From NCBI GenBank assembly GCA_020345785.1, contig CP070771.1, forward strand, positions 3,805,417 through 3,826,357: a stretch of DNA of 20,941 nt, given 5' to 3'. This document shows, in pieces, positions 5,630-20,941 of this stretch. The notes below the pieces were generated by a model. It was not told where the DNA came from, did no database searches, and saw only the letters and a list, made by a program, of their open reading frames with translations. Origin of the DNA: Desulfobacterales bacterium. Lineage in GTDB: Bacteria; Desulfobacterota; Desulfobacteria; Desulfobacterales; JAFDCJ01. Within the stretch, counting starts at the first letter, position 1. Each line of letters begins with the position of its first letter. The translations under genes and the position numbers were made by a program.

Positions 5630-5659
5630 GGTGGATTAACCGAAAAGCCTCTGCCGCAG
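5609..5659. terminator. Possible bidirectional terminator-like hairpin over two convergent stops
   Basis: CTGCAGCA (5609-5616) pairs with TGCCGCAG (5652-5659) with one mismatch, and GCTTTT (5622-5627) pairs with AAAAGC (5643-5648) around a 15-nt loop holding or touching both stop codons. The convergent genes are 6 nt apart, so any shared terminator must overlap coding sequence. There is no following U-run, so this is weak. Confidence 0.25.
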
Positions 5660-6490
5660 TGAATCCATGGTTTTGAAAACGACGCTTTTAGAAGCTTTGC
5701 GGACCAGTTTCCGCATGTACTCCGATGAGTACTCCGGCTCAATAACCGGTTGAGGGCTAATCTCCCAATCCTCGCAATCATAACCGATTCGTTTCATATA
5801 GGGTGTGTAAGCAGGTTTTAAAAGTTCGACATCCTCTTCGGTAAACCAGTGGCGCCAGTCACCGGTCGCTTTTTTGCGAATCACCTTGGCCTTGCCTGTT
5901 GTCTCGGGCACCTCCGCGTCTTCGGCCACATTAAATCCAAGGTAATTATTTAATCCTGCGAATTTCTTGTTCACCATATCCTCATAGGTAAAAAAGTACC
6001 AATCGTCCTCAAGACATTTTATAAATTCATGCATCCGCTGATAGCGCTCCTGCTCTTCTGCGAATACTTCTTCTAAAGAAAGCGGCCATCGGTTGAATCT
6101 GGCATAACGGTAAATTTCTGAAAAAGAAACCGAGCGAGGGTCGTTTTCTTTTCGCAAAACTAAATTTATGTGGGCTAGATACTGCTCTTTTTGGCCCTTG
6201 TTGCCGCGCTGCCAGCGGTAAAGCATCCGGCTGACTGCCACATCCCGTGGATCGCGGGCCATCCAGATCTTGCGATCGTAATGTTCCTCTTTTAAATGGT
6301 CCAGATACAATTCAAAGCTTTTGCCTTTGCTCTCCTCGTAGGTGTGCTTGTAGACGGCGTTTTCGTAGTCCCCTAAATATTTACCGGGTTTGCCGCCGGA
6401 AAATGCCTTGCAGTTCGGGAGTCCGCCGGCCACCTTGTAAACCAATGCCGTGGTTCCCGACTTTCCGGTGCCTAAGATGAAAATTTTCAT
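5636..6490 (-). CDS. PAPS-dependent sulfotransferase (copy 1)
   Basis: A 284-residue cytosolic sulfotransferase. The 5'-phosphosulfate-binding loop 'GTGKSGTT' is at 7-14 and the 3'-phosphate motif 'ARDPRDVAVSR' at 78-88. 'RKKATGDWRHWFT' at 205-217 matches the RKGxxGDWKxxFT signature of cytosolic-type sulfotransferases. It is expected to transfer sulfate from PAPS to a hydroxyl or amine, here most likely on a sugar of the surface glycan made by this locus. GGAGG 6 nt upstream supports the start. It is the last gene of the minus-strand locus, separated from the preceding gene by 238 nt of repeat-bearing sequence. It is a close paralogue of the gene at 13761-14627; long blocks (for example 'GDYENAVYKHTYEE') are identical. 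The family is clear; the acceptor is unknown. Confidence 0.88.
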   Translation of the reverse strand: MKIFILGTGKSGTTALVYKVAGGLPNCKAFSGGKPGKYLGDYENAVYKHTYEESKGKSFELYLDHLKEEHYDRKIWMARDPRDVAVSRMLYRWQRGNKGQKEQYLAHINLVLRKENDPRSVSFSEIYRYARFNRWPLSLEEVFAEEQERYQRMHEFIKCLEDDWYFFTYEDMVNKKFAGLNNYLGFNVAEDAEVPETTGKAKVIRKKATGDWRHWFTEEDVELLKPAYTPYMKRIGYDCEDWEISPQPVIEPEYSSEYMRKLVRKASKSVVFKTMDSLRQRLFG

Positions 6491-6605
6491 GTGAATCCTC
6501 CATACTAAATACCGCTTCTAATTTAAAACGGCTTGCAATCGATTTGAATTTCAGGTTCAAGAAATAGCTTTATTCTTTAAAATCAGATTGTGACAAAAAA
6601 TAGTT

Positions 6606-6664
6606 TCTCGCAGCGCCGCAAAGCCCGCAAAGGTAAATGATTAAGTTCATTTTGTCGCCTTTGC
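6606..6664. repeat. CGCAAAG-type repeat and hairpin between two operon genes
   Basis: The 238-nt gap contains CGCAGCGCCGCAAAGCCCGC-like repeats (6609-6633) running into a hairpin: GCAAAGG (6627-6633) pairs with CCTTTGC (6658-6664), and AAATGA (6635-6640) with TCATTT (6647-6652). No U-run follows, so it is not a typical terminator. A similar CGCAAAG/CGCAGAG word occurs at about 19774-19791. Confidence 0.45.
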
Positions 6665-6728
6665 TTCCTGGTCGGCCCGCCCCAAGCCAGATTGGTCCCG
6701 GTTCATCCGAGTTAGGTCCCGCTAAGCA

Positions 6729-8144
6729 TTAAACAGCGCTGATCCGGTAGAACTGATGAAAAATTTCTTCCACTATCAGTTCGGTGCGCTCCCCAAGCAT
6801 CTGTTGAAATTGGTCTAACCTTGATCTCAACTCTTGTAAAGAAACACCCGGATAGCGATGCCGCAAAAAATCAGCTTTGTTATGGGACATATCCGCGCTA
6901 AATCCCTTGAAACGCTTCTTTATTCGGCGCCGGGTTGCCCAGACGCGGCTTTTTAACCGCTGTTGGAGAGGAGGTGCCGGCGCAGCGTCTTGCATACTGT
7001 TTATCTCCTCGAAAATATCGACCATGCGATCACAGGCCATAGGGCCTTGCATCGCCGCCAGATGGTGCTCCATAATCCTTTGGCGTTCATCGCTGTTCGC
7101 ACTGCTGATTTTGCCTTTAAGGACATCTGCCAGGGTGTCCTGCAGTTCGTCATGATTGAAACATTCATGACTCAACTGATTGGGCAAGCGGTGAAAAGCG
7201 TTGTCGAAGTACTCGTTGATAGACGCCCGGTATGCAATTGTCGGCACCCCCAGCGCATACGCCTCCACCCCGGTCGTACATCCGTTGTGAATAAGGGCTT
7301 TGGCTGCAATCAGCCAAGGCACGACATTACCCTCATTGGTCACCCGCACCCGCCGGCAGGTTTTGGCGATGTTGTGGTACACCTCCTGATTTTCAGCCGG
7401 ATGGGGCCGCACGACGATCGTGTGATCCGGAAAGGCCCGATCCAAGGTCGGTATGAGGCGCTTAAAGTCTTCAAAAATGGATTGTTTGTGTTTGGTCAGA
7501 CCTTCGGCATATTCCCGGTTCATCCCCATTCCGACGGCGCGCCGGCTTAATTCCGGTTCTTGTCCCTTGCGGGCGGGGGGTTTGAGAATGTTCATATCCG
7601 GATAAAAGGCATTGACCTGATTAAAATTGGTGTTTACGAGGATGAAATTTCCATGGGTTTGACGAATTTTTGCAACATCATGCGTGTATAAACCGCGCAT
7701 TTCAGGTCGCAGCAAGTCGCCGCGCGGATTCCCGGTAATTTTAATCGACATTTCCGGCGGCATTTCCGGATATTGGCGCCACAACTGGACATTATCTTCT
7801 CCCCAGGCGAATAGATGGGATACGTATTTTATCGCCAGAGGGGACAGCCGCCGTTTGAAATATGAATCGGGGGGCAGATGGACCAGCGCTTCTTCATCCC
7901 AGGCCACAATCTGGTGGCCGAGTCGGTGCAGATTGCGAAATACATTCTTGCTGCCGCTGGTCAGGCTTTTGGATAAGTAGATGCCCCTTGGAAAAGAAGG
8001 GATATGAAAGTGCATCTCCCGGCGCGGTCCGATCACCGATGGAAATCCACGCTGCGCCGCAACACATGCCAGCAGCAGCTTGGGATCAAGCTCGCGCACC
8101 TGCAGTTCGACGGGAATAAGCAGCGTTGCTTTTGACGGGTTCAT
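6729..8144 (-). CDS. Surface carbohydrate biosynthesis protein (paralogue A)
   Basis: A 471-residue cytosolic protein of the 'surface carbohydrate biosynthesis' family (TIGR04396-like), probably GT-B fold. Landmarks: N-terminal 'LLIPVELQVRELDPKLLLAC', 'AWDEEALVHLP' at 81-91, 'GNPRGD' at 138-143, 'ILVNTNFNQVNAF' at 168-180, 'RPHPAEN' at 246-252 and 'HNGCTTGVEA' at 287-296. The last two resemble the donor-binding His motifs of CDP-glycerol-type transferases. These genes often sit next to NeuA/NeuB genes, so transfer of a CMP-activated sugar or backbone assembly is a reasonable guess, not proven. The start lies 9 nt after the NeuA stop, and GGAGG overlaps the end of neuA, so translation is probably coupled. 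Two more copies lie at 14671-16092 and 16189-17589; this one is the most divergent of the three by eye. Confidence 0.8.
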   Translation of the reverse strand: MNPSKATLLIPVELQVRELDPKLLLACVAAQRGFPSVIGPRREMHFHIPSFPRGIYLSKSLTSGSKNVFRNLHRLGHQIVAWDEEALVHLPPDSYFKRRLSPLAIKYVSHLFAWGEDNVQLWRQYPEMPPEMSIKITGNPRGDLLRPEMRGLYTHDVAKIRQTHGNFILVNTNFNQVNAFYPDMNILKPPARKGQEPELSRRAVGMGMNREYAEGLTKHKQSIFEDFKRLIPTLDRAFPDHTIVVRPHPAENQEVYHNIAKTCRRVRVTNEGNVVPWLIAAKALIHNGCTTGVEAYALGVPTIAYRASINEYFDNAFHRLPNQLSHECFNHDELQDTLADVLKGKISSANSDERQRIMEHHLAAMQGPMACDRMVDIFEEINSMQDAAPAPPLQQRLKSRVWATRRRIKKRFKGFSADMSHNKADFLRHRYPGVSLQELRSRLDQFQQMLGERTELIVEEIFHQFYRISAV

Positions 8145-8153
8145 TCTTTTAAA

Positions 8154-8885
8154 TTACCTCCGTTCCTGCATGAGCAATTCGACCAGCCTGAGATCCAGCT
8201 CACTGTCAATGCTGACCGATCTTTCCGGCGGCATTACGTAGGGACGGATACTTCGTCCCCAGATCGATTCCTGCTCCATGAGCACATCGCGGCGAGTCAA
8301 GTAAATGGCGCCGTTGCGCATATAGGCCGGCGGCTGATAATCCTGCCGGCGCGTGCCTTCTTTTTCTTCGATGCAATAGGGCAACAGGCGATTATCTTCG
8401 ATGCGTTTCATCAGAATGGGATGTTCCGCAAAGACCTGCACCACGCTGATCACGGAGTCGCACTCGCTTTGCAAGGCCGCTGTCAATGAACCTTCAATAT
8501 CTTCCAATGCGCGCAAGGGGGTCGTGGGTTGAAGCAGCAGCACCCAGTCAAGCTTGACGTTATCCTGCGCTTCAATAAATCTTACCGCGTGCTGGAGAAC
8601 CGGCAGCGTCGGTACGCTGTCTCCGGCGAGCTCAGCGGGCCTCAAAAAAGGAACCTCGGCACCATGATTGCGGGCGACGGCGGCGATCTCGGAATCATCG
8701 GTGCTGACGATAACCCGGAACAATAGTTGCCGCGCAGCCAGGGCCGTCTCGATCGTATAGGCAATCAGAGGCCTTCCGCAGACGGATCTGATGTTTTTGC
8801 GCACGACACCCTTCGATCCGCCGCGAGCCGGTATGACCGCCAATATTTTCGGTTCCGGTGTTTGGGAATTGTAAGACGGTTTCAT
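8154..8885 (-). CDS. neuA: NeuA-type acylneuraminate cytidylyltransferase
   Basis: A 243-residue CMP-sugar synthetase that would activate a nonulosonic acid with CTP. The nucleotide-binding signature 'IPARGGSKG...KNIR' is at 18-33, followed by 'VIVSTDDSEIA', 'LLLQPTTPLR' and 'YMRNGAIYLTR', the NGAIY block typical of NeuA/LegF/PseF enzymes. It ends with 'VSIDSELDL', which holds the metal-binding aspartates. It lies 36 nt after neuC and 9 nt before the surface-carbohydrate gene. The NeuC-NeuA order fits CMP-Neu5Ac or a close relative; legionaminate or another nonulosonate cannot be excluded from sequence alone. Only a weak Shine-Dalgarno sequence (GGAA, 8 nt upstream) is seen. Confidence 0.88.
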   Translation of the reverse strand: MKPSYNSQTPEPKILAVIPARGGSKGVVRKNIRSVCGRPLIAYTIETALAARQLLFRVIVSTDDSEIAAVARNHGAEVPFLRPAELAGDSVPTLPVLQHAVRFIEAQDNVKLDWVLLLQPTTPLRALEDIEGSLTAALQSECDSVISVVQVFAEHPILMKRIEDNRLLPYCIEEKEGTRRQDYQPPAYMRNGAIYLTRRDVLMEQESIWGRSIRPYVMPPERSVSIDSELDLRLVELLMQERR

Positions 8886-8921
8886 GCAATATTCCGGTTA
8901 AAGAAGGAAGTGATCATCTTT

Positions 8922-10076
8922 CTAATAAGTCAATCGTTTGTCGACAGTTAACGGCTGTTCGGCAAGAATATCGGCAATTCGCTGACCTGATTTTCCGTCG
9001 CCATAGAGGGTCGACGAAGGATATCTACCGTTTTTGAGGTGATGCCGGACGGCTTGCAGGATTGCCTCGGCCGAGTATCCGGTATCGATGATATTGGGTC
9101 CGCGATCGCGTCCTGCCTGCCGATTCCCGATGTTGACCGCGGGCACACCCAGAAATGATGCTTCGCGAACACCGACACTCGAATTGCCCACCATGCATTT
9201 GGAACCGATCAGCAAACGCAAAAAATCTTCCGGGGCCAAATTTTTAAAGAAATAGATGAACGGCACGTCGCGTGTCTCACGGAAATGGCGAATGCCCTTG
9301 GAGATCCGATCCGATCCGGCATCCACGTTGGGCCAGAACCAGAAGGTGGGACAGGCCAATTTTTCGATCGCCGTCAACGTCTCGTTGATCTGCTGCAGCG
9401 AGTCATTGTATTCGGTGGTTACCGGATGTTGCATGACCACCAGGTAGCCGTCTTTGGGGTCAAACTGATGCCCGACGCCTCCGTAATGGTCAAAGGGATT
9501 AAAATTGTTTTGTCCTTCGGCCATTACGCGCGCAGCGAGATCCACCGACGGGCAGCCCGTTTTAAACACCGTTTCAGGATTTTCACCCATGCGGATGACA
9601 CGGTCGGCTGCCTGTTGATTCGAGACAAAGTGCAGGTTGGCGAGTTTTGTTACCGCGTGGCGTACTTTTTCATCGATTGAGCCGGTCACCTCGCCGCCCT
9701 GTACGTGGGCGACGGGGATATTGAGATAGGAGGCGGCAATTGCCGTTGCGATGGTTTCGTAGCGATCGGCGACACTGACCACCACATCCGGCTTGAGGTT
9801 GTCAAAGATGGTCGCCAGTTCCACGACTCCCAGTCCGGTGGATTTGGCGGTCGTGACCAGGTTTTCGCCTTCAACCACCATATGAACCACGGCGTTGGGC
9901 TTAAAACCGTCGGCCTCGATGACCTTTATCGCCGGGCCGTAGCGTTCCAGTAGCGCCGAAGCACCGACCACCAATTGTAATTCCAGGTCCGGATGACTAC
10001 GCACCGATTCCAGGACTGTTTTGATTCGGGCATAGCTCGGCCGAGCGGTAATCACAACACAGATCTTTCTCATCAT
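8922..10076 (-). CDS. neuC: NeuC-type hydrolysing UDP-GlcNAc 2-epimerase
   Basis: A 384-residue GT-B-fold enzyme of the hydrolysing UDP-N-acetylglucosamine 2-epimerase family, which converts UDP-GlcNAc (or a modified form) to ManNAc-type sugar plus UDP. Visible motifs: 'TARPSYARIK' near the N-terminus, 'VSVADRYE' at 100-107, 'HVQGGEVTGSIDEKVRHA' at 124-141 and the C-terminal UDP-binding block 'GNSSVGVREASFLGVP'. It would supply the hexosamine substrate for the NeuB-type enzyme. Its ATG overlaps the stop of the upstream dehydrogenase gene (ATGA), indicating translational coupling; a second ATG follows directly. NeuC versus LegG (which acts on a UDP-bacillosamine derivative) cannot be decided here, but no bacillosamine-pathway genes are visible. 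Confidence 0.87.
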   Translation of the reverse strand: MMRKICVVITARPSYARIKTVLESVRSHPDLELQLVVGASALLERYGPAIKVIEADGFKPNAVVHMVVEGENLVTTAKSTGLGVVELATIFDNLKPDVVVSVADRYETIATAIAASYLNIPVAHVQGGEVTGSIDEKVRHAVTKLANLHFVSNQQAADRVIRMGENPETVFKTGCPSVDLAARVMAEGQNNFNPFDHYGGVGHQFDPKDGYLVVMQHPVTTEYNDSLQQINETLTAIEKLACPTFWFWPNVDAGSDRISKGIRHFRETRDVPFIYFFKNLAPEDFLRLLIGSKCMVGNSSVGVREASFLGVPAVNIGNRQAGRDRGPNIIDTGYSAEAILQAVRHHLKNGRYPSSTLYGDGKSGQRIADILAEQPLTVDKRLTY

Positions 10077-11050
10077 AACACTTTTTGATCCTTGTCCATT
10101 TCAAGTAGAAATTTTTTAAGTTTGTGAGCCATAAATAATTCTGTTTGGGCCATGGATTCATAGGTCGCGCCGCCAATATGCGGCGTAATCAATAAATTGT
10201 CGTGGTTACGGGCGTAGGCAAACAAAGGGCTTTTCATACGGCTTTCGGTATCGCGTTCGAAAGCAACGACATCCAGCGCCGCCCCTGCCAGATGCCTGTT
10301 CGTCAGCGCTTTGATCAAGGCGGATTCATCGATTACCCGGCCCCTGGATGTATTAACGAGCACTGCGCCCGCAGGCAACAGGGCCAGTTGGGCGGCGCCA
10401 ATCATCCCCTCGGTTTCAGTATTCAAGGGGACATGCAGGCTTAGAATATCGCTCTTCTTCAACAAATCGGTAAGCGTCAGCTTACGCCGGACACCCTCGA
10501 GCCATTCCTCAACCAGGGGATCATAGGCCGCCACCCGCATACCGAAGGCCTGACCGTAACGGGCAACCTTTTGGCCCAGACGCCCCAAACCAACGATTCC
10601 GAGACGCTGGCCGAACAACTCATGCCCCCGGAACTTATCGCGGTCCCATTGACCCTGCCGGGCTGCGATGGAAGCCGGGACGATATTTCTCATCAGAGCA
10701 AGTAGCAGGGCCCAGGTATGTTCCGCTGTGGCCTGCACTTGCTGTAAAAAATCCGTCTCTCCTCTCAGACTGAGTACGGCTATACCCTGTTGCCGTGCGT
10801 AGGCGACATCGATATGGTCAAGTCCGGTGGTAGCCGTGACAATAGCTCGCAAACGACGACCCGCCCCAATGAGCTCGCGATCGATCTGATTGGCCAAACG
10901 CACAATGAGTACATCAAAATCGCTCACTTCCCTCAACAGCTGGGATCGAGACATTTCTTTGGCGACCACGTTGCCCAGCTCCGATAATACAGCCCCGGCT
11001 TCGGCGCTGTATCCCAGAGGCTCGGCATTGAGAATGTTTATTCGCTTCAT
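10073..11050 (-). CDS. D-isomer-specific 2-hydroxyacid dehydrogenase
   Basis: A 325-residue NAD-dependent dehydrogenase. The substrate-binding domain covers about 1-100 and 290-325, with a Rossmann domain between. 'GIVGLGRLG' is the dinucleotide loop (151-159), and Asp177 at the end of the next strand ('AAYDP') favours NAD over NADP. The catalytic trio Arg236 ('NTSRGRVID'), Glu265 and His291 ('TPHIGG') is intact. Substrate is not readable from sequence: phosphoglycerate-, glycerate/hydroxypyruvate- or sugar-acid-type activity is possible. It lies inside the nonulosonate locus and overlaps neuC by 4 nt, so it probably serves this pathway. It may connect with the transketolase of the same locus, since hydroxypyruvate is a known ketol donor for transketolases (inference). 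No clear Shine-Dalgarno sequence precedes its ATG. Confidence 0.85.
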   Translation of the reverse strand: MKRINILNAEPLGYSAEAGAVLSELGNVVAKEMSRSQLLREVSDFDVLIVRLANQIDRELIGAGRRLRAIVTATTGLDHIDVAYARQQGIAVLSLRGETDFLQQVQATAEHTWALLLALMRNIVPASIAARQGQWDRDKFRGHELFGQRLGIVGLGRLGQKVARYGQAFGMRVAAYDPLVEEWLEGVRRKLTLTDLLKKSDILSLHVPLNTETEGMIGAAQLALLPAGAVLVNTSRGRVIDESALIKALTNRHLAGAALDVVAFERDTESRMKSPLFAYARNHDNLLITPHIGGATYESMAQTELFMAHKLKKFLLEMDKDQKVL

Positions 11051-11100
11051 ATTTAAATCAATATGCTATGCATTTTTTCCAGATTCAACTCTTGCCTGAG

Positions 11101-11177
11101 TTGAGCGATTTATCCGGTATTCAAGGTCTTGCTTGCGGGCTGGGCATCTGAGCAATCTTCTCAACCGAATCGCTCAA
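11101..11177 (-). other. Structured intercistronic element with 10-bp perfect stem
   Basis: TTGAGCGATT (11101-11110) is perfectly complementary to AATCGCTCAA (11168-11177). Inside, CGGT (11115-11118) can pair with ACCG (11164-11167), and TTGCT (11129-11133) with AGCAA (11151-11155). The element starts one base beyond the radical SAM stop codon and sits upstream of the dehydrogenase start. There is no trailing U-run. It could be an RNA processing or stability structure, a leader, or a small dispersed element. Confidence 0.4.
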
Positions 11178-11178
11178 T

Positions 11179-12555
11179 TTAGGTCTTATATAGTTTGCTA
11201 AAATAATATTTTGTCCTGCGAATCAGATTTTTGTAATGATAATTTTTGAAAATCGCCTCCTCGACAGCCTGTTTGCGGGGGTATATTTCATCGTCAGGCC
11301 ACTTTGTGAAATTTACGTGAACCTCTCCCATTCCGAAACTTTTCTCAAGTGCGGTTATGTATGCCGGCTCATCCTTGATAAGGCCCTGGGTCAGGCAGTC
11401 ATCATAGAGCTTGGATCCCGGAATGGGAGTTATGACCGTGAACCGTCTACCCGGATGGTCAACCCGTTTGAACAATTCTATGGTTTCCTGCAGGGTCGTC
11501 TCATCTTCTCCCGGATAGCCGAAAATTAATTGGACTTTAATCGGGATTTTGAGTTGCTGGGTATATATCATCGCGGATTCGATCTGCTTTACCGTTGTTT
11601 TTTTGTTCATGTTGTTGAGTATTTTTTGACTGCCAGACTCAATGCCGTAACCGATGCCCACGCAGTTGGTGGTTTTTATCAAACCTAAAAATTCTTTATC
11701 CACCAGATTCACTCTTGCCTGTCCGGCCCACGGCAGGTTAAGCGCTGATAAAAGAGGTGCTAATTCTTTAAACTTGGATTTACTGGAGAGAAACAGTTCG
11801 TCTCCGAAATAGATTTCATCCAACTTGAATTCATTCTTCAATCGGGCGATCATTTCATAAAGTTTGTTTGGTGATAGGCTTCTGAAACTCTGGCATGACT
11901 TGGAGCAAAAATGACATCGGTAGGGACAGCCTCTCGATGTGATAAAGGTCATTGCCCGAATACCCTTTTGCGAGCTGCCGGCGAACTTGTTTTTATGTCT
12001 AACGTATTTCTCCATATCGAAGAGCGAAAAATCGGGCAACGGAAGCTGGTCTAAATCCACAAATCGATCCTGAGAAGATGTCATTACGATTTTTCCGTTT
12101 TGTCGAAAGGCGATGCCCTTGACCCCAGCCAGATTTTTCCAGGATTGCAGTATTTCAAGCCCGGCAATTTCGCCCTCGCCGATAACACACACATCTGCAT
12201 CGGTGGTCTGCAGCACCATTTCAGCTTGGTAGGTCGCCAACGGTCCACCGACGATTACCGGGACATTGCGATTCTCTTTAATATATTTTGCAAACATCTT
12301 CACGGCCGGATACTGGGTGGAAAATGACGTTATTCCGACAATGTCAAAATCGAATTTATCAATTTCCGGCAAAAGCTCTTCTTTCGGCAGCTGCATTGCC
12401 TGCCCATCCAAAATGCTGACATCATATCCAGCCTCCCGGTAATAGCTCGCCAAAGTGGCCAAACCCCAGGGAAAAGCGATTGATGTTTTTTTCTTCTTTT
12501 TATTATTTTGTTTCTCATGCATTGGCTGAATGAGCAAAATCTTATTAAAATGCAT
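11179..12555 (-). CDS. B12-binding-type radical SAM protein
   Basis: A 458-residue enzyme with an N-terminal cobalamin-binding-type domain (about 5-140: 'GLATLASYYREAGYDVSILDG', 'DIVGITSFSTQ', 'VIVGGPLATY', 'CVIGEGE') and a radical SAM core. 'RGCPYRCHFC' carries the CX3CX2C cluster ligands C210, C214 and C217, and 'GIESGS' at 304-309 fits the SAM-binding region. No DxHxxG motif is seen, as is common in this enzyme class. Members methylate or rearrange unreactive carbons in lipids, sugars and natural products, so a tailoring step on the glycan or its carrier is plausible, but the reaction is unknown. GGGAG 6 nt upstream supports the start. Base composition looks more A/T-rich than in neighbouring genes, and a Lys-rich segment (19-23) is encoded by A-rich DNA. 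Insertion from another source is possible. Confidence 0.85.
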   Translation of the reverse strand: MHFNKILLIQPMHEKQNNKKKKKTSIAFPWGLATLASYYREAGYDVSILDGQAMQLPKEELLPEIDKFDFDIVGITSFSTQYPAVKMFAKYIKENRNVPVIVGGPLATYQAEMVLQTTDADVCVIGEGEIAGLEILQSWKNLAGVKGIAFRQNGKIVMTSSQDRFVDLDQLPLPDFSLFDMEKYVRHKNKFAGSSQKGIRAMTFITSRGCPYRCHFCSKSCQSFRSLSPNKLYEMIARLKNEFKLDEIYFGDELFLSSKSKFKELAPLLSALNLPWAGQARVNLVDKEFLGLIKTTNCVGIGYGIESGSQKILNNMNKKTTVKQIESAMIYTQQLKIPIKVQLIFGYPGEDETTLQETIELFKRVDHPGRRFTVITPIPGSKLYDDCLTQGLIKDEPAYITALEKSFGMGEVHVNFTKWPDDEIYPRKQAVEEAIFKNYHYKNLIRRTKYYFSKLYKT

Positions 12556-12578
12556 GCTGTTCTCCCTGATTCACATCA

Positions 12579-12592: not shown

Positions 12593-12671
12593 CCATGTGC
12601 TATCATTTTATCCGGCGCTGATAGCTTCAAAAGAAGGTACCAGAATGCGTTCAAATCCGATATTGATTATT

Positions 12672-14627: not shown

Positions 14628-14670
14628 TGCAAATCTCCTCTTTTACCTAATCTACGAATCAACCAGTCAA

Positions 14671-16092
14671 CTATTCAACTGACCGAGGCCCGATCAAAAA
14701 GATCTGGTCGGACACTTGCGTGATGTTTAATTTTACCCTGTCACCGATAACCTGCTGCAGCCTTGATATTCTTTCCTCAAGCTCGACCAGCGAGATTCCG
14801 GGATATCGATGACGATGAAATTCTTCCGGCGCATGTTTGCCCGGCAGATATTTGCGAATATAACGATTAAAGCGGCGCCAGTTGGCCAGACTCCAGCCCA
14901 GCGCTCGCCGGTTCGGTGTCGGTTTGGGCAACTCGGGTCGGGCCTCCATGATACTTGCAAGAACATCCACTATCCGTTCACACGCCAGCGGACCGTCATG
15001 GGCGCTCAAATATTTTTTGACCAGCTCGCGGCGGTCATCGCCATCGGCCGCACCGAGTTCGCCATTTATGATTCTGTTCAGGGTTTCCAGCAGTTGATCG
15101 GCATCGAAACATTGATGACTGATTAAGTTCGGCAGCCGATAAAATCCAAGATCGTATTCTTCATTGATCTTGGCGCGGTATGATACGGCCGGCACACCCA
15201 TTACGTAGGCTTCCACGCCTGTGGTGCAGCCGTTGTGGATAACCGCCCCGGTTGCCATCAGCCAGGGCACCACATTGCCTTCATTTGTCACTTTGACGCG
15301 TTTGCACCCGGCGGCAATATCCTGATAGATCTGCTGGTTTTCGGTCGGATGCGGTCGAACGATAACCGTGTGATCCGGAAAAGCGCCGTCCAGCATGGGA
15401 ATCATCTGCTTGAAGGCATCCAGGATGGCCTGCTTGTGATCCCGCAGTCCCTCGGCGTACGTACGGCTCATTCCCACGGCTGCTTTGCCGAATTGAGAGG
15501 ATTCACCGTTGCCTTTCAGCGGCTGGAATAAATTTTGAGCCGGATAAAAGGCATTTACATGGTTGAAATTCGTATTAACCAGAATGAAGGGGCCATGTTT
15601 TCTTCTTAAATTTTCTGCTTCCGGTTCATAAAACGGCTGTAGTTCAGGGCGCAGCATGTCGCCGCGCGGATTACCCGTGACGTGAATCGGCATGCCGGCG
15701 GGCATTTCCGGATACCTGCGCCACAATTCGGCATTGTCCTCACCCCAGGCAAATAAATGGGCGACGTATCGGATGGCAACCGGTGAAAGGCGGCGAGAAT
15801 AGTAGGTGTCGGCCGGCAGATGTACCAGCGCTTCTTCATCCCAGGTTACGATCTCATGACCGATTTTTTGCATGATGCGAAACATTTTTAGGTTACGATC
15901 GGTCATGCTCTTGTTGAGATACAGACTTCTCGGAAAAGATGAAATCCGGAGATCTATCTCGCGATGCGATCCGATAACAACCTTGAACCCCCGTTGGGCT
16001 GCGATACAGGCCAGCAACAGTTTGGGGTCAAGTTCGCGCACCTGGTTTTCAACCGGTATGATAAGGCACGCTTGTTGGCCTTTTATCTTCAC
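14671..16092 (-). CDS. Surface carbohydrate biosynthesis protein (paralogue B)
   Basis: A 473-residue paralogue of the genes at 6729-8144 and 16189-17589. It has the same landmarks: 'IIPVENQVRELDPKLLLAC', 'TWDEEALVHLPADT', 'GNPRGD' (140-145), 'ILVNTNFNHVNAF', 'RPHPTEN' (246-252) and 'HNGCTTGVEA' (286-295). It ends in the shared 'HRHRYPGISL' segment and a C-terminal helix. I chose the GTG at 16092 because GGAG lies 7 nt upstream. An ATG two codons earlier (16098) is only 1 nt from that GGAG, and a longer frame back to 16173 would add 25 low-complexity residues absent from both paralogues. It is probably a GT-B-type transferase for the surface glycan. It lies in tandem with paralogue C and directly before sulfotransferase copy 2. 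Confidence 0.8.
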   Translation of the reverse strand: MKIKGQQACLIIPVENQVRELDPKLLLACIAAQRGFKVVIGSHREIDLRISSFPRSLYLNKSMTDRNLKMFRIMQKIGHEIVTWDEEALVHLPADTYYSRRLSPVAIRYVAHLFAWGEDNAELWRRYPEMPAGMPIHVTGNPRGDMLRPELQPFYEPEAENLRRKHGPFILVNTNFNHVNAFYPAQNLFQPLKGNGESSQFGKAAVGMSRTYAEGLRDHKQAILDAFKQMIPMLDGAFPDHTVIVRPHPTENQQIYQDIAAGCKRVKVTNEGNVVPWLMATGAVIHNGCTTGVEAYVMGVPAVSYRAKINEEYDLGFYRLPNLISHQCFDADQLLETLNRIINGELGAADGDDRRELVKKYLSAHDGPLACERIVDVLASIMEARPELPKPTPNRRALGWSLANWRRFNRYIRKYLPGKHAPEEFHRHRYPGISLVELEERISRLQQVIGDRVKLNITQVSDQIFLIGPRSVE

Positions 16093-16114
16093 GAGCATTC
16101 TCCTTTTACTTCTA

Positions 16115-16153
16115 CCGGAGGCCGTTTGATCCCTACGGTCTCGGTTCCTCCGG
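16115..16153 (-). other. Intercistronic hairpin between paralogues C and B
   Basis: CCGGAGG (16115-16121) pairs with CCTCCGG (16147-16153), and CCGT (16122-16125) stacks with ACGG (16135-16138), leaving a 9-nt loop and a one-sided bulge. It lies about 12 nt upstream of the paralogue B Shine-Dalgarno sequence. No U-run follows. It may protect or separate mRNA segments. Confidence 0.35.
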
Positions 16154-16188
16154 CTCACGATAACGGTTTGCATCCTTCATCTAGGCGC

Positions 16189-17589
16189 TTAGACCTTAAT
16201 CTGAAAAAGCACCTCGCTGAGCTGCGTAACATTCAGCTTGGTATTATCGTTGATGATGCCCTGTATCCGTTCTATTTTCGATTGTATTGAATCGATTGAT
16301 ATGCCCGGATAGCGGTGGCGCTGGAATTCGGGTCGATTGTGAGATCCGGGTAATTTGGGTTTCAACCGTTTGTACAGATGATACCCGTCGGCAATGAGTC
16401 GACGCTGGAGGCGATCCCAAAATGAAAGCCGGGTAGTATGGTTCCGTGCCGCCACGACAGATGCCAGGACGTCTACTATTTTTTCGCAGGCCAGGGAACC
16501 ATCCCGGGACGCCAGATAACTTTTCACAATCGTTCGGCGCTCATCGCCGTCTGCCACGCCCAGGTTGCCGGTGAGAATCCGATGGATCATATCCTGCAAT
16601 TGGTCGAAGTTAAAGCACTGGTGGCTTAACGTGTTGGGCAGCCGGTAAAATCCGTTGTCGTACTTTTCATCAACCGATTCACGGTAGCTGATGGCCGGCA
16701 CCCCCATGACAAATGCCTCCACCCCTGTGGTACATCCGTTGTGCAAAACCACCCTGGTGGCCAATATCCAGGGGACCACATTGCCTTCGTTGGTTACCTG
16801 CACCCGTGAACAACGGGCGGCAATCGCCTTGTATACATCATGGCTCTCGGTGGGATGAGGGCGAATGATGATGTTCAGGTCCGGGAAAGCTCGATCCAGT
16901 TTAGGGATGATCTGCTGGAAAGATTTGAAAACGGCGTGTTTATGATTCCAAAGTCCCTGGGCGTAGTCCCGGCTCATGCCGCGAGCCGCCCGACCGAATT
17001 TAGGTATATCGCCCGCTTTGTCAACCGGCTTAAATAAATTCAGATCAGGTCCAAATGCGTTGACATGGTTGAAGTTGGTATTTACCAGAATAAAATCCCC
17101 ATGTCGGTGCTTTAGTGCCGTTACTTCTTTTTCATAAAACGAATGCATTTCCGGGCGCAGCATATCATTGCGCGGATTTCCGGTTACGTGGATCGGTACA
17201 TCTTGGGGCAAATGGGGATATTGCTGCCACATCTCTGCGTTGTCCTGGCCCCAGGCAAACAAATGCGACACCAGTTTGATCGCTTCCGGATGCAGCCTGC
17301 GGGAAAAATAGGTATCCGCGGGCAAATGCACCAATGCCTCTTCGTCCCACGTGACGATATCATGTCCGAACTTGCGGGCGATGCGGAAAAAGATCAGGCT
17401 GCGACCGGTCATACTCTTTGAGAGATATATACTTCTGGGATACGAGTCGATGCGAAACTCGAGTTCCCGGCGCGATCCGATTACCGACGAAAAGCCTCTG
17501 CGGGCGGCAACACACGCCAATAACAGCTTGGGATCGAGTTCCCGCACCTGATTTTCCACCGGGATGAGTAGTAACATGTTTGTATCCAT
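16189..17589 (-). CDS. Surface carbohydrate biosynthesis protein (paralogue C)
   Basis: A 466-residue member of the same TIGR04396-like family, closest to paralogue B by eye. Landmarks: 'LLLIPVENQVRELDPKLLLAC' at 6-26 (split here as the conserved N-terminal block), 'TWDEEALVHLPADT', 'TGNPRND' with Asn where the other two have Gly, 'RPHPTES' at 243-249 and 'HNGCTTGVEA' at 283-292. It ends with 'RHRYPGISIDSI' and a helix. The start at 17589 has no good Shine-Dalgarno sequence; a second ATG at 17577 is possible. It is a likely glycosyltransferase or polymer-chain transferase acting at the inner membrane face. It lies 137 nt after the transketolase gene and 96 nt before paralogue B. Confidence 0.8.
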   Translation of the reverse strand: MDTNMLLLIPVENQVRELDPKLLLACVAARRGFSSVIGSRRELEFRIDSYPRSIYLSKSMTGRSLIFFRIARKFGHDIVTWDEEALVHLPADTYFSRRLHPEAIKLVSHLFAWGQDNAEMWQQYPHLPQDVPIHVTGNPRNDMLRPEMHSFYEKEVTALKHRHGDFILVNTNFNHVNAFGPDLNLFKPVDKAGDIPKFGRAARGMSRDYAQGLWNHKHAVFKSFQQIIPKLDRAFPDLNIIIRPHPTESHDVYKAIAARCSRVQVTNEGNVVPWILATRVVLHNGCTTGVEAFVMGVPAISYRESVDEKYDNGFYRLPNTLSHQCFNFDQLQDMIHRILTGNLGVADGDERRTIVKSYLASRDGSLACEKIVDVLASVVAARNHTTRLSFWDRLQRRLIADGYHLYKRLKPKLPGSHNRPEFQRHRYPGISIDSIQSKIERIQGIINDNTKLNVTQLSEVLFQIKV

Positions 17590-17653
17590 TTTGTTGTCTT
17601 GTAACTGCTTACGTCTTATTTTCTGTAAACCAAGTCTTATTACCTGTCCATAT

Positions 17654-17714
17654 GCTGGGAAGCTTGGAGGCTTTAAGTTTGATATATACCTTCAGCTCCT
17701 CCTGGCCTTCCAGC
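17654..17714 (-). other. Intercistronic hairpin after the transketolase gene
   Basis: GCTGGGAAG (17654-17662) pairs, with one bulged G, with CTTCCAGC (17707-17714), and GGAGG (17666-17670) pairs with CCTCC (17698-17702) around a 27-nt loop. It lies in the 137-nt gap between the transketolase stop and the next start. No U-run follows it on the minus strand. Confidence 0.35.
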
Positions 17715-17726
17715 TACCCTGCCACT

Positions 17727-19658
17727 TCATGCTCCTCGCATGGTTTTCAAGATCGTCGCTGCGATACTTTTACCATCTAATTTATGATGCGCCAGTACTT
17801 CCGGAGGTGTTCCGCAGGCGGGGTACTCGTCCAGGCCAAACTTTATAAACCGTTTGCTGCGTGCGGCATCTATTTTTTGGGCGGTATTTAAAAGCTGATC
17901 TCCCAGACCGCCGTATTGCGAGTGGTTATCTAAGATAAAGACCGTGTCGCAATCAGCGATGCTCCTTTCAAACCATTCTCTGTCGACGCGGTTCAGCCAG
18001 GGCAGATTGATGACTTTGAGCGAAAAATTATTAACCTGCAACGTTTCTGCGGCAGTTACCGCTTCATTTAACATGACCGGACCGTAGGCAAACAGGACGG
18101 CATCGCGGCCCTCCATAATTACGGTTCCCTGAGCATATGTGAATTGGTAATCATCCGGCAACGGTATCGTCCGGGGCGACGGTGATATCGCCAACCGCAG
18201 CATGCAGCTTTGAGGGGCTTCATTGACACACCATTTCAACGCTTCTTTGGTCTCAACCCCATTGGCCGGCTCGATTAATACACAGTTTGGAAGGGCGCCA
18301 AACAGGGAGATATCGCGGACGCTTTGGTGGGATTTTCCCGGGCCGGCAGGAATCAACCCCGCGTAATGACAGACATAAATAATTTTGGTTTTCTCGGTGG
18401 CGTTATTGTAAATCTGTTCATTGGCGCGGGAGGCCAGAAATACCCCGAAAGAGTTGACAACCGGCAGCAGCCCTTGCAGGGCCAGACCGCCGGCAGTGGA
18501 GACCATGTCCTGCTCGGCAATGCCGCTTTCAATAAAGCGCTGCGGATAGGTGTTTTCAAAAAGCCGCAATCCGCAATCTGCCGACAGATCGGCGTCCAGA
18601 ACGATCATGTCCTCTCTATTCTCCGCCAGTTCGACCAACGCTTCACCATATGCATTGACGACTTTTTCGGCGGTGTCCTTAAGTTTGACCCGATTCTTTT
18701 CTCTGGTCTCGATAACGATGCTCGACAACGCATCAAGACCGGCTTTATAAAGCAGACGATTGATATTTTCGGTAAGTTCGCGGTAGCCGGCTTCAAACGC
18801 ATCGTCATCGGGTGCTCCGGCATGCCATTTGTATAGAAATTTTTCGTCCGGTAACTCCGTCGGACTTTCCATAAAAGAAATGCCCCTGCCTTTGACGGTG
18901 TCGGCAATCAACACTTTGGGCTTGTCGTTGATTCCCTTCAGTTTGGTAAAGACACGCTCCAAAGCGGCAAAATCATGCCCATCACAGCGTTCGACATGCC
19001 AACCGAAGACCTTGAATTTTGATTCCAGATCGCCGAGATCGATGATGTGTTTAAGCGCCTTGTCCGACTGAAATTTGTTGCAATCGACGATAACGGTAAG
19101 GTTATTGATTTTCTGATGTGTGCTGGTCTGCAGGGATTCCCAAATTTGTCCTTCCTGGAGTTCGCCGTCGCCGGTCATCACGATAACCCGGCCGCCGGAT
19201 CCCTTTGACTGCTTGGCCCATGCCATACCCTTGGCCTTTGAAATCCCCATGCCCAGCGAGCCGGAGTTGGCCTCAATTCCGGGTATGCTGACATCCGGGT
19301 GGCCGTGGGTGCCGCCGTAGCGTCTCAGATTGATGAATTGCGCCTCGGGGATGATGCCCAAAGCGTAGAGAACAGCGTAATGTCCGGGAACATCATGACC
19401 TTTGGAAGAAAAATAGATATCACGGTCCGGATGGGAGATGCCCAGCTCGGCAAAATTCAGCTCGGCAAAATAAAGGGCGGTGACGATGTCCAATGAGCTG
19501 AAACTGGATCCCAGGTGTCCGGAGCCCGCGCGTTTGACGGTAGCAATCGCATTGGCCCGGCACATATCGGCCAGCAAATGCAGTTTGGTATATTTATCAA
19601 TATTGGCTGCGCGAACGCGTCTAAATTCTTTTTCAGGAATGAGTCGTATCTCAATCAT
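17727..19658 (-). CDS. Full-length transketolase of the polysaccharide locus
   Basis: A 643-residue thiamine-diphosphate enzyme that would move a two-carbon ketol unit between sugars. N-half: 'GSGHLGSS' (His48), 'SSKGHDVPGHY' (His88), 'GTHGHPD' and the ThDP/metal motif 'GDGELQEG' at 163-170 with 'DCNKFQ' (Asn194). C-half: 'DADLSAD' near 355, catalytic Glu382 in 'ESGIAEQDM', then 'SFGVFLASRANEQI'. A C-terminal regulatory-type domain runs from about 520. The layout resembles a fusion of the split N- and C-section transketolases rather than the housekeeping TktA type. AAGGAG lies 11 nt upstream, a rather long spacing. Its place in this locus suggests synthesis of an unusual chain-extended or ketose-derived sugar; substrate unknown. 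Confidence 0.88.
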   Translation of the reverse strand: MIEIRLIPEKEFRRVRAANIDKYTKLHLLADMCRANAIATVKRAGSGHLGSSFSSLDIVTALYFAELNFAELGISHPDRDIYFSSKGHDVPGHYAVLYALGIIPEAQFINLRRYGGTHGHPDVSIPGIEANSGSLGMGISKAKGMAWAKQSKGSGGRVIVMTGDGELQEGQIWESLQTSTHQKINNLTVIVDCNKFQSDKALKHIIDLGDLESKFKVFGWHVERCDGHDFAALERVFTKLKGINDKPKVLIADTVKGRGISFMESPTELPDEKFLYKWHAGAPDDDAFEAGYRELTENINRLLYKAGLDALSSIVIETREKNRVKLKDTAEKVVNAYGEALVELAENREDMIVLDADLSADCGLRLFENTYPQRFIESGIAEQDMVSTAGGLALQGLLPVVNSFGVFLASRANEQIYNNATEKTKIIYVCHYAGLIPAGPGKSHQSVRDISLFGALPNCVLIEPANGVETKEALKWCVNEAPQSCMLRLAISPSPRTIPLPDDYQFTYAQGTVIMEGRDAVLFAYGPVMLNEAVTAAETLQVNNFSLKVINLPWLNRVDREWFERSIADCDTVFILDNHSQYGGLGDQLLNTAQKIDAARSKRFIKFGLDEYPACGTPPEVLAHHKLDGKSIAATILKTMRGA

Positions 19659-19800
19659 TATAGTTGGTGCTCCTTATTGATTTACCCCTTAAACTTTGCC
19701 GCCCCATGCGGGATGGTCCAAGCTTTGCTATGCAGGTAGTTATTTGAGAATCCACCGCCCGCTGCGCTCGAGCCGCAAAGATCGCAGAGAAAAATTGTCT

Positions 19801-19886
19801 TTTTCCTTTGCCGTTGAGAGGCCCCGCTGAGGCGGGATGACCGATCGAATCTTATAAAGTAGTGGTCGGCCTACGGCAAAGGAAAA
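19801..19886. repeat. Inverted repeat with 14-bp perfect arms
   Basis: TTTTCCTTTGCCGT (19801-19814) is the exact complement of ACGGCAAAGGAAAA (19873-19886). AGGCC near 19819-19823 can extend the stem with GGCCT near 19868-19872 across a short bulge. The loop contains the CCCGC-TGAG-GCGGG hairpin. It is compatible with a small non-autonomous element; no target duplication is obvious. Confidence 0.45.
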
Positions 19887-19970
19887 GCTCTAGGCTTTGA
19901 TGCTCCATCAAGTCACTTATGAGGGTATGTCGTTTATTAGTAGCCAGTTAATGTCCCGAAGGGTTGCTGA

Positions 19971-20005
19971 TTTTTGCTTTCCGCCCTCTCAGCGGAAAGC
20001 AAAAA
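19971..20005. repeat. Perfect 14-bp hairpin with 7-nt loop
   Basis: TTTTTGCTTTCCGC (19971-19984), loop CCTCTCA, then GCGGAAAGCAAAAA (19992-20005). The stem is perfect. On both strands the T-run precedes and the A-run follows the hairpin, the opposite of an intrinsic terminator, so I class it as a palindromic element. Confidence 0.5.
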
Positions 20006-20018
20006 CACGAAATAAATC

Positions 20019-20047
20019 CTCTGCGTGCTCAGCGTCTCTGCGGTGAA
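20019..20047. repeat. CTCTGCG-type short-period repeat
   Basis: Three variants in a row: CTCTGCGTG, CTCAGCGT and CTCTGCGGTGAA, with a period of 8-9 nt. It ends 10 nt from the stop codon of the cytidylyltransferase gene at 20058. Similar words recur in intergenic DNA of many bacteria, in my experience; no function is known to me. Confidence 0.45.
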
Positions 20048-20057
20048 TATTACCTTT

Positions 20058-20813
20058 TCAAGAGTAAACTGTTTGCCTCACCTGCGGCAATTTTGCATCA
20101 CCTTTTCGAACCAGTTGTTCGGCAAGCTGCCAGTCGTACTCATTGTTCACGTCGAACCCTTCGTAATCAACCGTGAAAAACGGCATGACCACGTTGCCGG
20201 CGATGGTTCGACCCTCGAAAACCACCCGCGACCATGCAATTTCCAAACTGGCATTCTGAACATATATTTCCGGCAGCGTGGGGTATTGACTGCTGTGCCA
20301 CGGCTGTTCGGGCGGACCCAGCGGCAAAAGCGGTGTCATGCGATTGCCCCGCACCACCCACATCTTTCCGGGGTGCTGGCTGCATTTCTCCACGGCCCGC
20401 AAGGAATCGACGCCGGTTTGGTTTGAAAAATCCATCCAGGCCCGCCGGATGGTTTCCGGCAACCGAAACGGACTGGTAGGTCGCAAAATGCTGAAGCAGT
20501 CATAGCTGCGACCTTCATCCTTCAGGCGGCCCAACGTATAAGAAAGCCATTCAATGTCGGGGGATTGGTCGCCGGCCAGTTTTGTCGGACGCAGAAACGG
20601 TACCTGCGCCCCGTAATATTTTACAATTTGCGCATAGTGGTCCGAGTCCGTTGACACGATCACATCGGCAAAGATTCCGCTGTCGAGGGCGGCTGCGATC
20701 GTATAGGCGATGACCGGATGACCGGCCAGCGGCCGGATGTTCTTATCCGGAACCCGTTTGGAGCCGGAGCGGGCGGGAATTAATGCAACGATAGTAGTTT
20801 GTTTTTCAGACAT
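20058..20813 (-). CDS. Second acylneuraminate-type cytidylyltransferase
   Basis: A 251-residue CTP-dependent sugar-acid activating enzyme, the first gene of the minus-strand locus visible here. The N-terminal signature 'IPARSGSKRVPDKNIRPL' lies at 12-29, followed by 'VIVSTDSDHYA', 'QVPFLRPTKLAGDQSPD' and 'ILRPTSPFR'. The block that reads N-G-A-I-Y in the NeuA copy (8154-8885) is 'YVQNASLEIAW' here, and 'FDVNNEYDWQLAE' stands in place of the usual 'IDSELDL'. It is thus a distinct subgroup and probably activates a different 2-keto sugar acid or serves a different step. The start at 20813 has a GGA 7 nt upstream. A 399-nt repeat-rich gap separates it from the transketolase gene. Confidence 0.83.
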   Translation of the reverse strand: MSEKQTTIVALIPARSGSKRVPDKNIRPLAGHPVIAYTIAAALDSGIFADVIVSTDSDHYAQIVKYYGAQVPFLRPTKLAGDQSPDIEWLSYTLGRLKDEGRSYDCFSILRPTSPFRLPETIRRAWMDFSNQTGVDSLRAVEKCSQHPGKMWVVRGNRMTPLLPLGPPEQPWHSSQYPTLPEIYVQNASLEIAWSRVVFEGRTIAGNVVMPFFTVDYEGFDVNNEYDWQLAEQLVRKGDAKLPQVRQTVYS

Positions 20814-20937: not shown

Positions 20938-20941
20938 TGAA

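What the first reader, a model, noticed from the sequence alone, without database searches (positions are those of the whole stretch)
5636..20813. Locus combining nonulosonate synthesis, transketolase, B12-type radical SAM and two sulfotransferases
Twelve minus-strand genes appear to form one surface-glycan locus. NeuC, NeuB and NeuA give a route to a CMP-nonulosonate. The added transketolase, dehydrogenase, radical SAM enzyme, second cytidylyltransferase and two PAPS-type sulfotransferases are not part of known Neu5Ac, legionaminate or pseudaminate pathways. Together they suggest a sulfated glycan containing an unusual acidic sugar. The families are read from motifs; the product is inference.
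Basis: partly seen in the sequence, partly recalled or inferred. Interest (0 to 1): 0.7.

Follow-up and report, generated by a model that had tools for sequence, protein, structure and literature searches.

The report
Sialic-type sugar locus with altered transketolase
A probable Desulfobacterota bacterium carries two side-by-side gene sets for activated sialic-acid-like sugars plus enzymes that may attach and sulphate them, and one set, found in many unrelated microbes, includes a transketolase with a changed active site that may cut two carbons off the sugar's tail.

Summary
(A) NeuA2 and the transketolase (TK) belong to a conserved module: HAD phosphatase, NeuB paralogue (NeuBm), SDR, aldehyde dehydrogenase (ALDH), NeuA2, TK. 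In relatives its first half stands upstream of NeuA2, here beyond the window end and unseen. By record titles it spans at least seven phyla, Archaea included. (B) NeuB, NeuC, NeuA1, a 2-hydroxyacid dehydrogenase and a radical SAM protein form a Neu-type module; one Chloroflexota genome carries NeuB-NeuC-NeuA1-DH shortly before NeuBm-ALDH-NeuA2-TK. Module TKs have lost donor-phosphate residues (E. coli R358, S385, H461, R520) that nine canonical paralogues from the same genomes keep. ALDH and a class III aminotransferase replace each other (32 against 12 of 80 loci, none with both). I propose tail shortening: SDR makes a penultimate ketone, TK removes two carbons, the aldehyde is oxidised or aminated, as in tartrate formation from 5-ketogluconate. 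The locus reading is strong; the chemistry is inference (about 0.35).

The parts
5636..6490 (-). Sulphotransferase ST2 (284 aa)
   Evidence: PF00685 30.2 bits against cut-off 22; 5'-PSB-like GTGKSGTT and 3'-PB-like RDPRDVAVS (motif names recalled); 67% identical to ST1
6729..8144 (-). SCB1, TIGR04396 protein (471 aa), probable GT-B transferase
   Evidence: TIGR04396 396.2 bits, cut-off 125
8154..8885 (-). NeuA1, CMP-sugar synthase-type cytidylyltransferase (243 aa)
   Evidence: PF02348; PARGGSK motif; PseF model 157 bits, below its cut-off 205.7
8922..10076 (-). NeuC, hydrolysing UDP-GlcNAc 2-epimerase type (384 aa)
   Evidence: TIGR03568 382.9 bits, above cut-off 235.9
10073..11050 (-). D-2-hydroxyacid dehydrogenase (325 aa), overlaps NeuC by 4 bp; role unresolved
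   Evidence: PF02826/PF00389; near NeuA1 and NeuC also in L187/L189 (57%) and L135 (41%)
11179..12555 (-). B12-binding-domain radical SAM protein (458 aa)
   Evidence: PF02310 + PF04055; CPYRCHFC cluster motif, no DxHxxG; homologues 57% in L135, 62% in L017
12672..13718 (-). NeuB, Neu5Ac-synthase-like (348 aa)
   Evidence: PF03102+PF08666; TIGR03569 319.1 bits, below cut-off 399.65; best solved relative SiaC, 190 bits
13761..14627 (-). Sulphotransferase ST1 (288 aa)
   Evidence: PF00685 24.2 bits against cut-off 22; GTGKTGTT and RDPRDAAVS; follows SCB2 in L003, L004, L005, L060, L076
14671..16173 (-). SCB2, TIGR04396 protein (500 aa)
   Evidence: TIGR04396 389 bits; 61% identical to SCB3
16189..17589 (-). 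SCB3, TIGR04396 protein (466 aa), GT-B fold
17727..19658 (-). Module-type transketolase (643 aa) with donor-phosphate residues replaced
   Evidence: PF00456/PF02779/PF02780; residue comparison with nine canonical paralogues
20058..20813 (-). NeuA2, cytidylyltransferase (251 aa) of the TK module
   Evidence: PF02348; a NeuA2-type gene in 28 of 80 TK loci, for example directly before TK in L001, L003, L004, L005, L060

Best explanation
The locus makes two CMP-activated 3-deoxy-ulosonic acids and builds them into a sulphated surface glycan. Module B: NeuC releases ManNAc (or a related sugar) from a UDP-sugar, NeuB condenses it with PEP, NeuA1 activates the product; the dehydrogenase and radical SAM enzyme modify it or its precursor. 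Module A continues past the window end: NeuBm condenses PEP with an aldose or aldose phosphate, the HAD enzyme removes a phosphate, SDR oxidises the penultimate carbon so that the tail becomes CH2OH-CO-CHOH-, TK removes that two-carbon unit, ALDH oxidises the new terminal aldehyde to a carboxylate, and NeuA2 activates the shortened diacid; from a KDN-like C9 acid this gives a 3-deoxyheptulosaric-acid-type sugar. TIGR04396 GT-B proteins transfer the sugars and the paired PAPS-type enzymes sulphate the glycan. Shown: gene content, conservation, TK residue changes, ALDH/aminotransferase exclusion, GT-B fold. Inferred: every substrate and product, the order of SDR, TK, ALDH and NeuA2, the direction of TK, the presence of NeuBm, SDR, ALDH and HAD next to this window, and sulphation.
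For: Module A: of 80 TK-family loci from public genomes, 43 hold a NeuB relative, 46 the SDR, 32 the ALDH, 35 a matched NeuA, 29 the HAD, 23 NeuBm+SDR+ALDH+NeuA together; 0 of 9 canonical TK neighbourhoods (11.6-18 kb) hold any of these. TK and the nearest NeuB share a strand in 42 of 43 loci, median gap 3.1 kb. 11 genomes whose TK locus lacks NeuB and NeuA were searched (of 31 such loci): 11 of 11 have a NeuBm relative elsewhere. Chloroflexota: 7 of 251 genomes have NeuBm, 6 of 251 the TK, 5 both, hypergeometric 1.6e-8. G887, of the same family as L001's genome, has HAD-NeuBm-SDR-ALDH-NeuA2-TK-GT2-methyltransferase-SCB3-ST1. TK: at the R358, S385, H461, D469 and R520 places 10 of 10 module TKs and the window differ from 9 of 9 canonical paralogues, while the R and D of HQSxRD are the same in 78 of 78 rows with letters there. 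E. coli TktA R358I/H461S/R520Q is cited with 55.3% higher activity on 5-ketogluconate (PMC12016104 passages). ALDH 32 of 80 loci, class III aminotransferase 12, both 0. For L003 the SDR's best models are D-mannonate oxidoreductase and gluconate 5-dehydrogenase, the ALDH's 2,5-dioxovalerate dehydrogenase, all below cut-off. SCB3 fold: CDP-ribitol, CDP-glycerol and CMP-bound polymerases among the matches.
Against: The window's own module-A first half is not seen; the 128 bp left after NeuA2 hold no ALDH end. 31 of 80 TK loci have no matched NeuB or NeuA nearby; 12 of these are under 10 kb, but others have full flanks. L170, L176 and L177 keep NeuBm-SDR-NeuA2 but show neither TK nor ALDH; L179 and L181 have TK without ALDH; L013, L186 and L187 have TK+ALDH without an SDR match: the set is not indivisible. 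TK was found in G836 without NeuBm being reported there (different draws). The ALDH/aminotransferase split largely follows phylogeny (the 12 loci are Bacteroidota/Ignavibacteria-type or unnamed), so the Fisher value (1.2e-7) overstates independent events. TK can work in the forward direction on uronic acids (PMC8317047, abstract and sections 6 and 9). The controls are shorter than most TK loci, and in one of nine (L144) the window TK did not itself register. The ST model was poor (pLDDT 51.5).
Confidence: 0.35

Rival explanations
1. TK supplies the precursor: it builds a rare aldose or ketose by two-carbon transfer, and NeuBm condenses that sugar with PEP; SDR and ALDH or aminotransferase adjust the precursor before condensation.
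For: TK is known for chain building, and T. maritima TK extends uronic acids with hydroxypyruvate to 7-keto-octuronic acid (PMC8317047 abstract). The TK gene is close to NeuB. The HAD/KdsC-like enzyme suits a phosphorylated condensation product.
Against: The trio SDR-TK-ALDH also stands beside NeuC-NeuB-NeuA in L077 and L079, where NeuC should already make the NeuB substrate. Loss of the phosphate residues fits poorly with sugar phosphates.
Confidence: 0.25
2. TK extends the tail: SDR or another enzyme makes a terminal aldehyde on the ulosonate and TK adds a two-carbon ketol unit, giving C10-C11 acids.
For: Same reaction in reverse; the lost phosphate site could leave room for a large unphosphorylated acceptor.
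Against: Does not explain why an aldehyde-consuming ALDH and a class III aminotransferase replace each other.
Confidence: 0.15
3. An ordinary Neu5Ac locus beside unrelated glycan genes; TK, DH, radical SAM and the sulphotransferases are incidental neighbours.
For: Surface-glycan loci are shuffled often (general knowledge); ST1 is rare outside close relatives (1 of 297 and 2 of 299 genomes, but 4 of 8 in one family), as is the radical SAM protein at E<=1e-90 (1 of 291, five candidates scored per genome).
Against: Recurrent clustering across phyla; radical SAM homologue (62%) inside the TK module in L017; NeuB-NeuC-NeuA1-DH near the TK module in G906.
Confidence: 0.12
4. TK, SDR and ALDH or aminotransferase make a hydroxyacyl or amino-acyl substituent attached to the ulosonate, not its carbon chain.
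For: The trio goes with either type of NeuB, as a decorating unit would.
Against: Among the recurrent families of the 80 loci that I identified (about 14 of the 40 listed) there is no acyl-CoA ligase or amide-forming enzyme; the rest were not identified.
Confidence: 0.1

Closest known systems
Neu5Ac pathway (NeuC-NeuB-NeuA; SiaC of Neisseria meningitidis)
   Same: NeuC passes its curated cut-off; window NeuB is nearest to SiaC among solved structures
   Different: NeuB is below the NeuB_NnaB cut-off; DH and radical SAM added; a second NeuA
KDN and Kdo pathways (synthase, KDN-9-P or KdsC phosphatase, cytidylyltransferase; pathway logic recalled)
   Same: Module A has the same synthase-HAD-cytidylyltransferase logic; HAD scores with KdsC and KDN-9-phosphatase models, below cut-offs
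   Different: SDR, ALDH or class III aminotransferase, and TK added; substrate unknown
Tartrate formation from 5-ketogluconate (TK and a semialdehyde dehydrogenase)
   Same: Same enzyme classes; the TktA mutant cited in PMC12016104 changes three of the residues that the module TKs have lost
   Different: There free C6 acids; here proposed on an ulosonic acid. In plants the TK step is described as putative (PMC11066805 passages)
Canonical transketolase (TktA type)
   Same: Three-domain ThDP enzyme, GDG-X28-N and the glutamate of GIAEQ kept (motif roles recalled)
   Different: 23.6-26.5% identity to nine canonical paralogues; donor-phosphate residues replaced
TagF/TarL CDP-polyol transferases and TIGR04396/BFO_1060 glycosyltransferases
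   Different: Donor not known; BFO_1060 model scores 61-76 bits, below its cut-off 200

Membership tests
Neu5Ac biosynthesis | Hydrolysing UDP-GlcNAc 2-epimerase NeuC | tested here: met
   382.9 bits against cut-off 235.9
Neu5Ac biosynthesis | Neu5Ac synthase by curated cut-off (TIGR03569) | tested here: not met
   319.1 against 399.65; nearest solved relative is SiaC, so Neu-like, not filed as Neu5Ac synthase
Neu5Ac biosynthesis | Product is Neu5Ac | not testable with these tools
   needs enzymology
Legionaminate/pseudaminate biosynthesis | LegB/LegC or PseB/PseC dehydratase and aminotransferase in the locus | tested here: not met
   None of the 12 window genes scores as such; they could lie elsewhere in the genome
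Canonical transketolase | ThDP-binding GDG-X28-N and catalytic glutamate | tested here: met
   read by eye in the alignment; motif recalled
Canonical transketolase | Donor-phosphate residues R358, S385, H461, R520 (E. coli numbering, recalled; R358, H461 and R520 also in PMC12016104) | tested here: not met
   gap, D, Y and I at these places in the window; 9 of 9 canonical paralogues keep R, S, H and R
TIGR04396 surface carbohydrate proteins | Curated score cut-off 125 | tested here: met
   396.2, 389.0, 386.0 bits
PAPS-dependent sulphotransferases | Sulfotransfer_1 cut-off and PAPS-binding motifs | tested here: met
   30.2 and 24.2 bits against 22; motifs (recalled)
PAPS-dependent sulphotransferases | Sulphotransferase fold | tested here: inconclusive
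   model pLDDT 51.5, not searched
TK-ulosonate module (described here) | NeuBm, SDR, ALDH and HAD upstream of NeuA2 | not tested
   window ends 128 bp after NeuA2; no own genome held; present in relatives L001 and L129

The most novel reading that the evidence does not exclude
A widespread, undescribed route in bacteria and archaea in which a transketolase adapted to unphosphorylated sugar acids trims two carbons off a nonulosonic acid, so that one scaffold gives either dicarboxylic (heptulosaric-type) or terminally aminated ulosonic acids for CMP activation. This would offer an enzymatic origin for 3-deoxy-lyxo-heptulosaric acid in bacterial glycans.
Probability: 0.3. Interest if true: 0.82.

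Novelty: new variant of a known kind. Interest (0 to 1): 0.6.

Why it matters
As far as I recall, the known nonulosonic acids are all made by adding carbons. A cassette found in at least seven phyla by record titles, with a transketolase that lost its phosphate site, points to a sugar class that I found in no described pathway: in the held library, searches listed no paper that links transketolase to nonulosonate genes by listing or by the passages I read; I did not read the other listed papers, and the library lacks most subscription journals. 3-Deoxy-lyxo-heptulosaric acid was reported in Rhizobiaceae LPS (title seen in the reference list of PMC5713287). Sulphated and nonulosonate glycoconjugates co-occur in granular sludge while known sulphotransferases gave few hits there (PMC10483923 passages); the ST family here (1130 proteins at E<=0.001, the best 120 listed) is a candidate.

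Tried and rejected
Own genome: none held, so the sequence past 20941 could not be read. First idea, that this TK is the only, housekeeping TK: rejected, since 9 of 9 genomes have a separate canonical TK. Idea that TK makes the NeuB substrate: kept as a rival. Window NeuB as anchor at E<=1e-60: 0 of 8 genomes in the family of G007, 2 of 4 in that of G830. ST structure: low confidence, not searched. The 399-bp gap before TK holds no gene that I could see; two perfect inverted repeats. Promoter and terminator scans: at shuffle level. A loose SDR coenzyme pattern of mine matched 0 of 46 SDRs; the visible motif is TGALGKLG-like, so I draw nothing from that test. My expression for the TK ThDP motif was set too short and returned none; the motif was read by eye. 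In one search I had labelled a V column as R358; the alignments put a gap there. The phage, plasmid and E. coli collections were not searched; the third protein-database search was not used.

Rows dropped before counts: matches covering under 40% of the query (30-35%). The counts depend on contig length: 12 of the 31 loci without NeuB/NeuA are under 10 kb; that call did not yet use the Bacteroidota-type NeuA as a query. One radical SAM match of 25% identity lies in a control neighbourhood (1 of 9). Genome searches scored only the best few candidates per genome (four for TK, five for radical SAM), so their counts are lower bounds; searches drew 291 and 251 genomes, not the same set. In the class of G003, 10 of 291 genomes had NeuBm: TK was adjacent in five (L171, L172, L174, L178, L179), not in the held stretch in three (L170, L176, L177), elsewhere in the genome in G003, on another contig in G812. 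In Chloroflexota the E-value limit missed one TK (46% identity, L181). Of six NeuBm places fetched, three are aminotransferase-type clusters, L163 is HAD-NeuBm-SDR-NeuA2, L165 NeuBm-HAD-SDR, and L164 shows NeuBm alone.
Full report
WHAT IS THERE. Twelve minus-strand ORFs fill 5636-20813. From the upstream (high-coordinate) end they read: NeuA2 cytidylyltransferase, transketolase, two TIGR04396 proteins (SCB3, SCB2), sulphotransferase ST1, NeuB, B12-domain radical SAM protein, D-2-hydroxyacid dehydrogenase, NeuC, NeuA1, a third TIGR04396 protein (SCB1), sulphotransferase ST2. DH and NeuC overlap by 4 bp; the largest gap, 399 bp, lies between NeuA2 and TK. ST1 and ST2 are 67% identical, SCB2 and SCB3 61%, NeuA1 and NeuA2 33%. 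Few of the TK relatives of 80-89% identity bear a name; those that do are Desulfobacterales or Thermodesulfobacteriota (best 120 listed), and the closest genome locus is a Desulfobacterales MAG at 81%. The host is therefore probably a Desulfobacterota bacterium; no own genome is held.

TWO MODULES, ONE OF THEM CUT BY THE WINDOW END. One scan of public genomes with the TK gave 80 loci (best 80 of 116 relatives kept). Beside TK, the commonest neighbour families were an SDR, a NeuB paralogue, a cytidylyltransferase, an aldehyde dehydrogenase and a HAD phosphatase. With window genes and L001/L003 proteins as queries, 43 of 80 loci hold a NeuB relative, 46 the SDR, 35 a matched NeuA, 32 the ALDH, 29 the HAD; 23 hold NeuBm, SDR, ALDH and NeuA together, 17 of these with HAD. 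Nine canonical TK neighbourhoods of 11.6-18 kb from nine of these genomes hold none of them; they are shorter than the longest TK loci (22 kb), and in one (L144) the window TK itself did not register. TK and the nearest NeuB share a strand in 42 of 43 loci with a median gap of 3.1 kb. Record titles of loci with the module span Desulfobacterota, Gammaproteobacteria, Chloroflexota, Gemmatimonadota, Planctomycetota, Bacteroidota/Ignavibacteria and methanogenic Archaea, with a variant in Acidobacteria. NeuBm is about 28-35% identical to the window NeuB; its nearest solved relatives are SpsE, PseI and SiaC with similar scores (156, 147 and 139 bits), whereas the window NeuB is nearest to SiaC (190 against 137 bits for SpsE). 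So the window's NeuA2 and TK look like the second half of a module whose NeuBm, SDR and ALDH stand upstream of NeuA2 in L001, L003, L005, L060, L129 and L171. In this genome that part would lie beyond 20941 and has not been seen.

CO-OCCURRENCE WITHOUT ADJACENCY. Of the 31 TK loci without a matched NeuB or NeuA, 11 genomes were searched: 11 of 11 have a NeuBm relative elsewhere, at 60-81% identity in three and 34-43% in eight. In three Ignavibacteria-type genomes that place is a cluster SCB-like, Kdo-type NeuA, class III aminotransferase, SDR, HAD, NeuBm (L161, L162, L166). In Chloroflexota 7 of 251 genomes had NeuBm and 6 of 251 the TK, 5 both; four of these have the pair within 7 kb, the fifth on two contigs, and a further pair (L181) was below the limit set.

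THE WINDOW COMBINATION RECURS. NeuA2-TK-SCB3-SCB2-ST1 is conserved in L003, L004, L005 and L060, in part in L066 and L076. NeuB-NeuC-methyltransferase-NeuA1-DH, two glycosyltransferase-like genes (the first only by matches below cut-off), and NeuBm-ALDH-NeuA2-TK stand on one strand in G906 (Chloroflexota). L017 has NeuBm-HAD-SDR-ALDH-NeuA2-radical SAM (62%)-TK, then NeuA1-NeuC-NeuB; L009 has TK-NeuA1-NeuB-NeuC. L135 has radical SAM-GT-GT-NeuB on one strand and NeuC-DH-acetolactate-synthase-like TPP enzyme-Gfo/Idh-NeuA1 on the other. Within the family of G007 ST1 occurs in 4 of 8 genomes, but in only 1 of 297 drawn from the phylum of G003 and 2 of 299 from that of G009, one of the two at 29% identity.

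THE TRANSKETOLASE. Each of nine genomes has a separate canonical TK. Aligned against these, ten module TKs and the window have a gap at R358, D at S385, Y/F/L at H461, P at D469 and (mostly I) at R520, but keep the ThDP motif, the catalytic glutamate and the histidine aligned with H473 (over the whole family alignment D in 79 of 79, Y/F/L in 78 of 78, P in 77 of 78, I in 72 of 78; numbering recalled, partly confirmed by PMC12016104). New fixed residues appear, among them R and D of HQSxRD and the R of LRL, each in 78 of 78 rows with letters there. The TKs without NeuB nearby share this signature, so it marks the family. PMC12016104 (passages) cites an E. coli variant R358I/H461S/R520Q with 55.3% higher activity on 5-ketogluconate; PMC11066805 (passages) explains that a TK in tartrate synthesis must accept at least one unphosphorylated substrate. 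The module TKs thus look like natural versions of that change.

WHY TAIL SHORTENING. SDR, TK and ALDH match the classes of the tartrate route: penultimate oxidation, two-carbon removal, aldehyde oxidation. Twelve loci have a class III aminotransferase (best model PRK06209 for L016, below cut-off) and 32 the ALDH, none both: an aldehyde is the natural common intermediate. The split mostly follows phylogeny. In a second sample, 16 of the 19 NeuBm places were read: ALDH was found in 7 of 9 with TK and in 0 of 7 without, though only three of those seven (L170, L176, L177) show enough downstream sequence. The trio also goes with NeuC-NeuB-NeuA in L077 and L079, which argues that it acts on the acid, not on the NeuB substrate. 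Against: L013, L186 and L187 lack an SDR match nearby, L179 and L181 have TK without ALDH, and TK can extend uronic acids (PMC8317047, abstract and sections 6 and 9). Products are inference; a KDN-like start would give a heptulosaric acid.

CONFIDENCE. Two CMP-ulosonate modules with GT-B and sulphotransferase genes: about 0.85. TK acts on an unphosphorylated substrate: about 0.65. Tail shortening to an aldehyde: about 0.35, and the full statement is set at 0.35 since it cannot be likelier than that step. Roles of DH and the radical SAM protein: open.

Noticed in passing
window 19659-20057 and 20814-20941: The gap between TK and NeuA2 and the stretch upstream of NeuA2 hold short repeat-like motifs (CACCGCAGAGACGCTGAGCACGCAGAG; runs of CACGAAAA with their complement) that resemble dispersed intergenic repeats (resemblance recalled).
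   Followed up: partly
window 1402-2946: DUF4015 putative glycosyl hydrolase gene on the minus strand, and a DUF6279 gene at 212-1144 on the plus strand, outside the finding.
   Followed up: no
window 4604-5629: 341-aa plus-strand ORF running towards ST2, no Pfam or NCBIfam match.
   Followed up: no
L135:10280-11875: Acetolactate-synthase-like TPP enzyme and a Gfo/Idh/MocA oxidoreductase stand between DH and NeuA1 in a relative of module B.
   Followed up: partly
L073:9011-10978: A Pelagibacter MAG has the module TK as two adjacent ORFs next to NeuB and NeuC.
   Followed up: no
L016, L023, L047 and nine more loci: Bacteroidota/Ignavibacteria-type form of the module: SCB-like protein, Kdo-type cytidylyltransferase, TK, class III aminotransferase, SDR, sometimes HAD, short NeuB.
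   Followed up: partly
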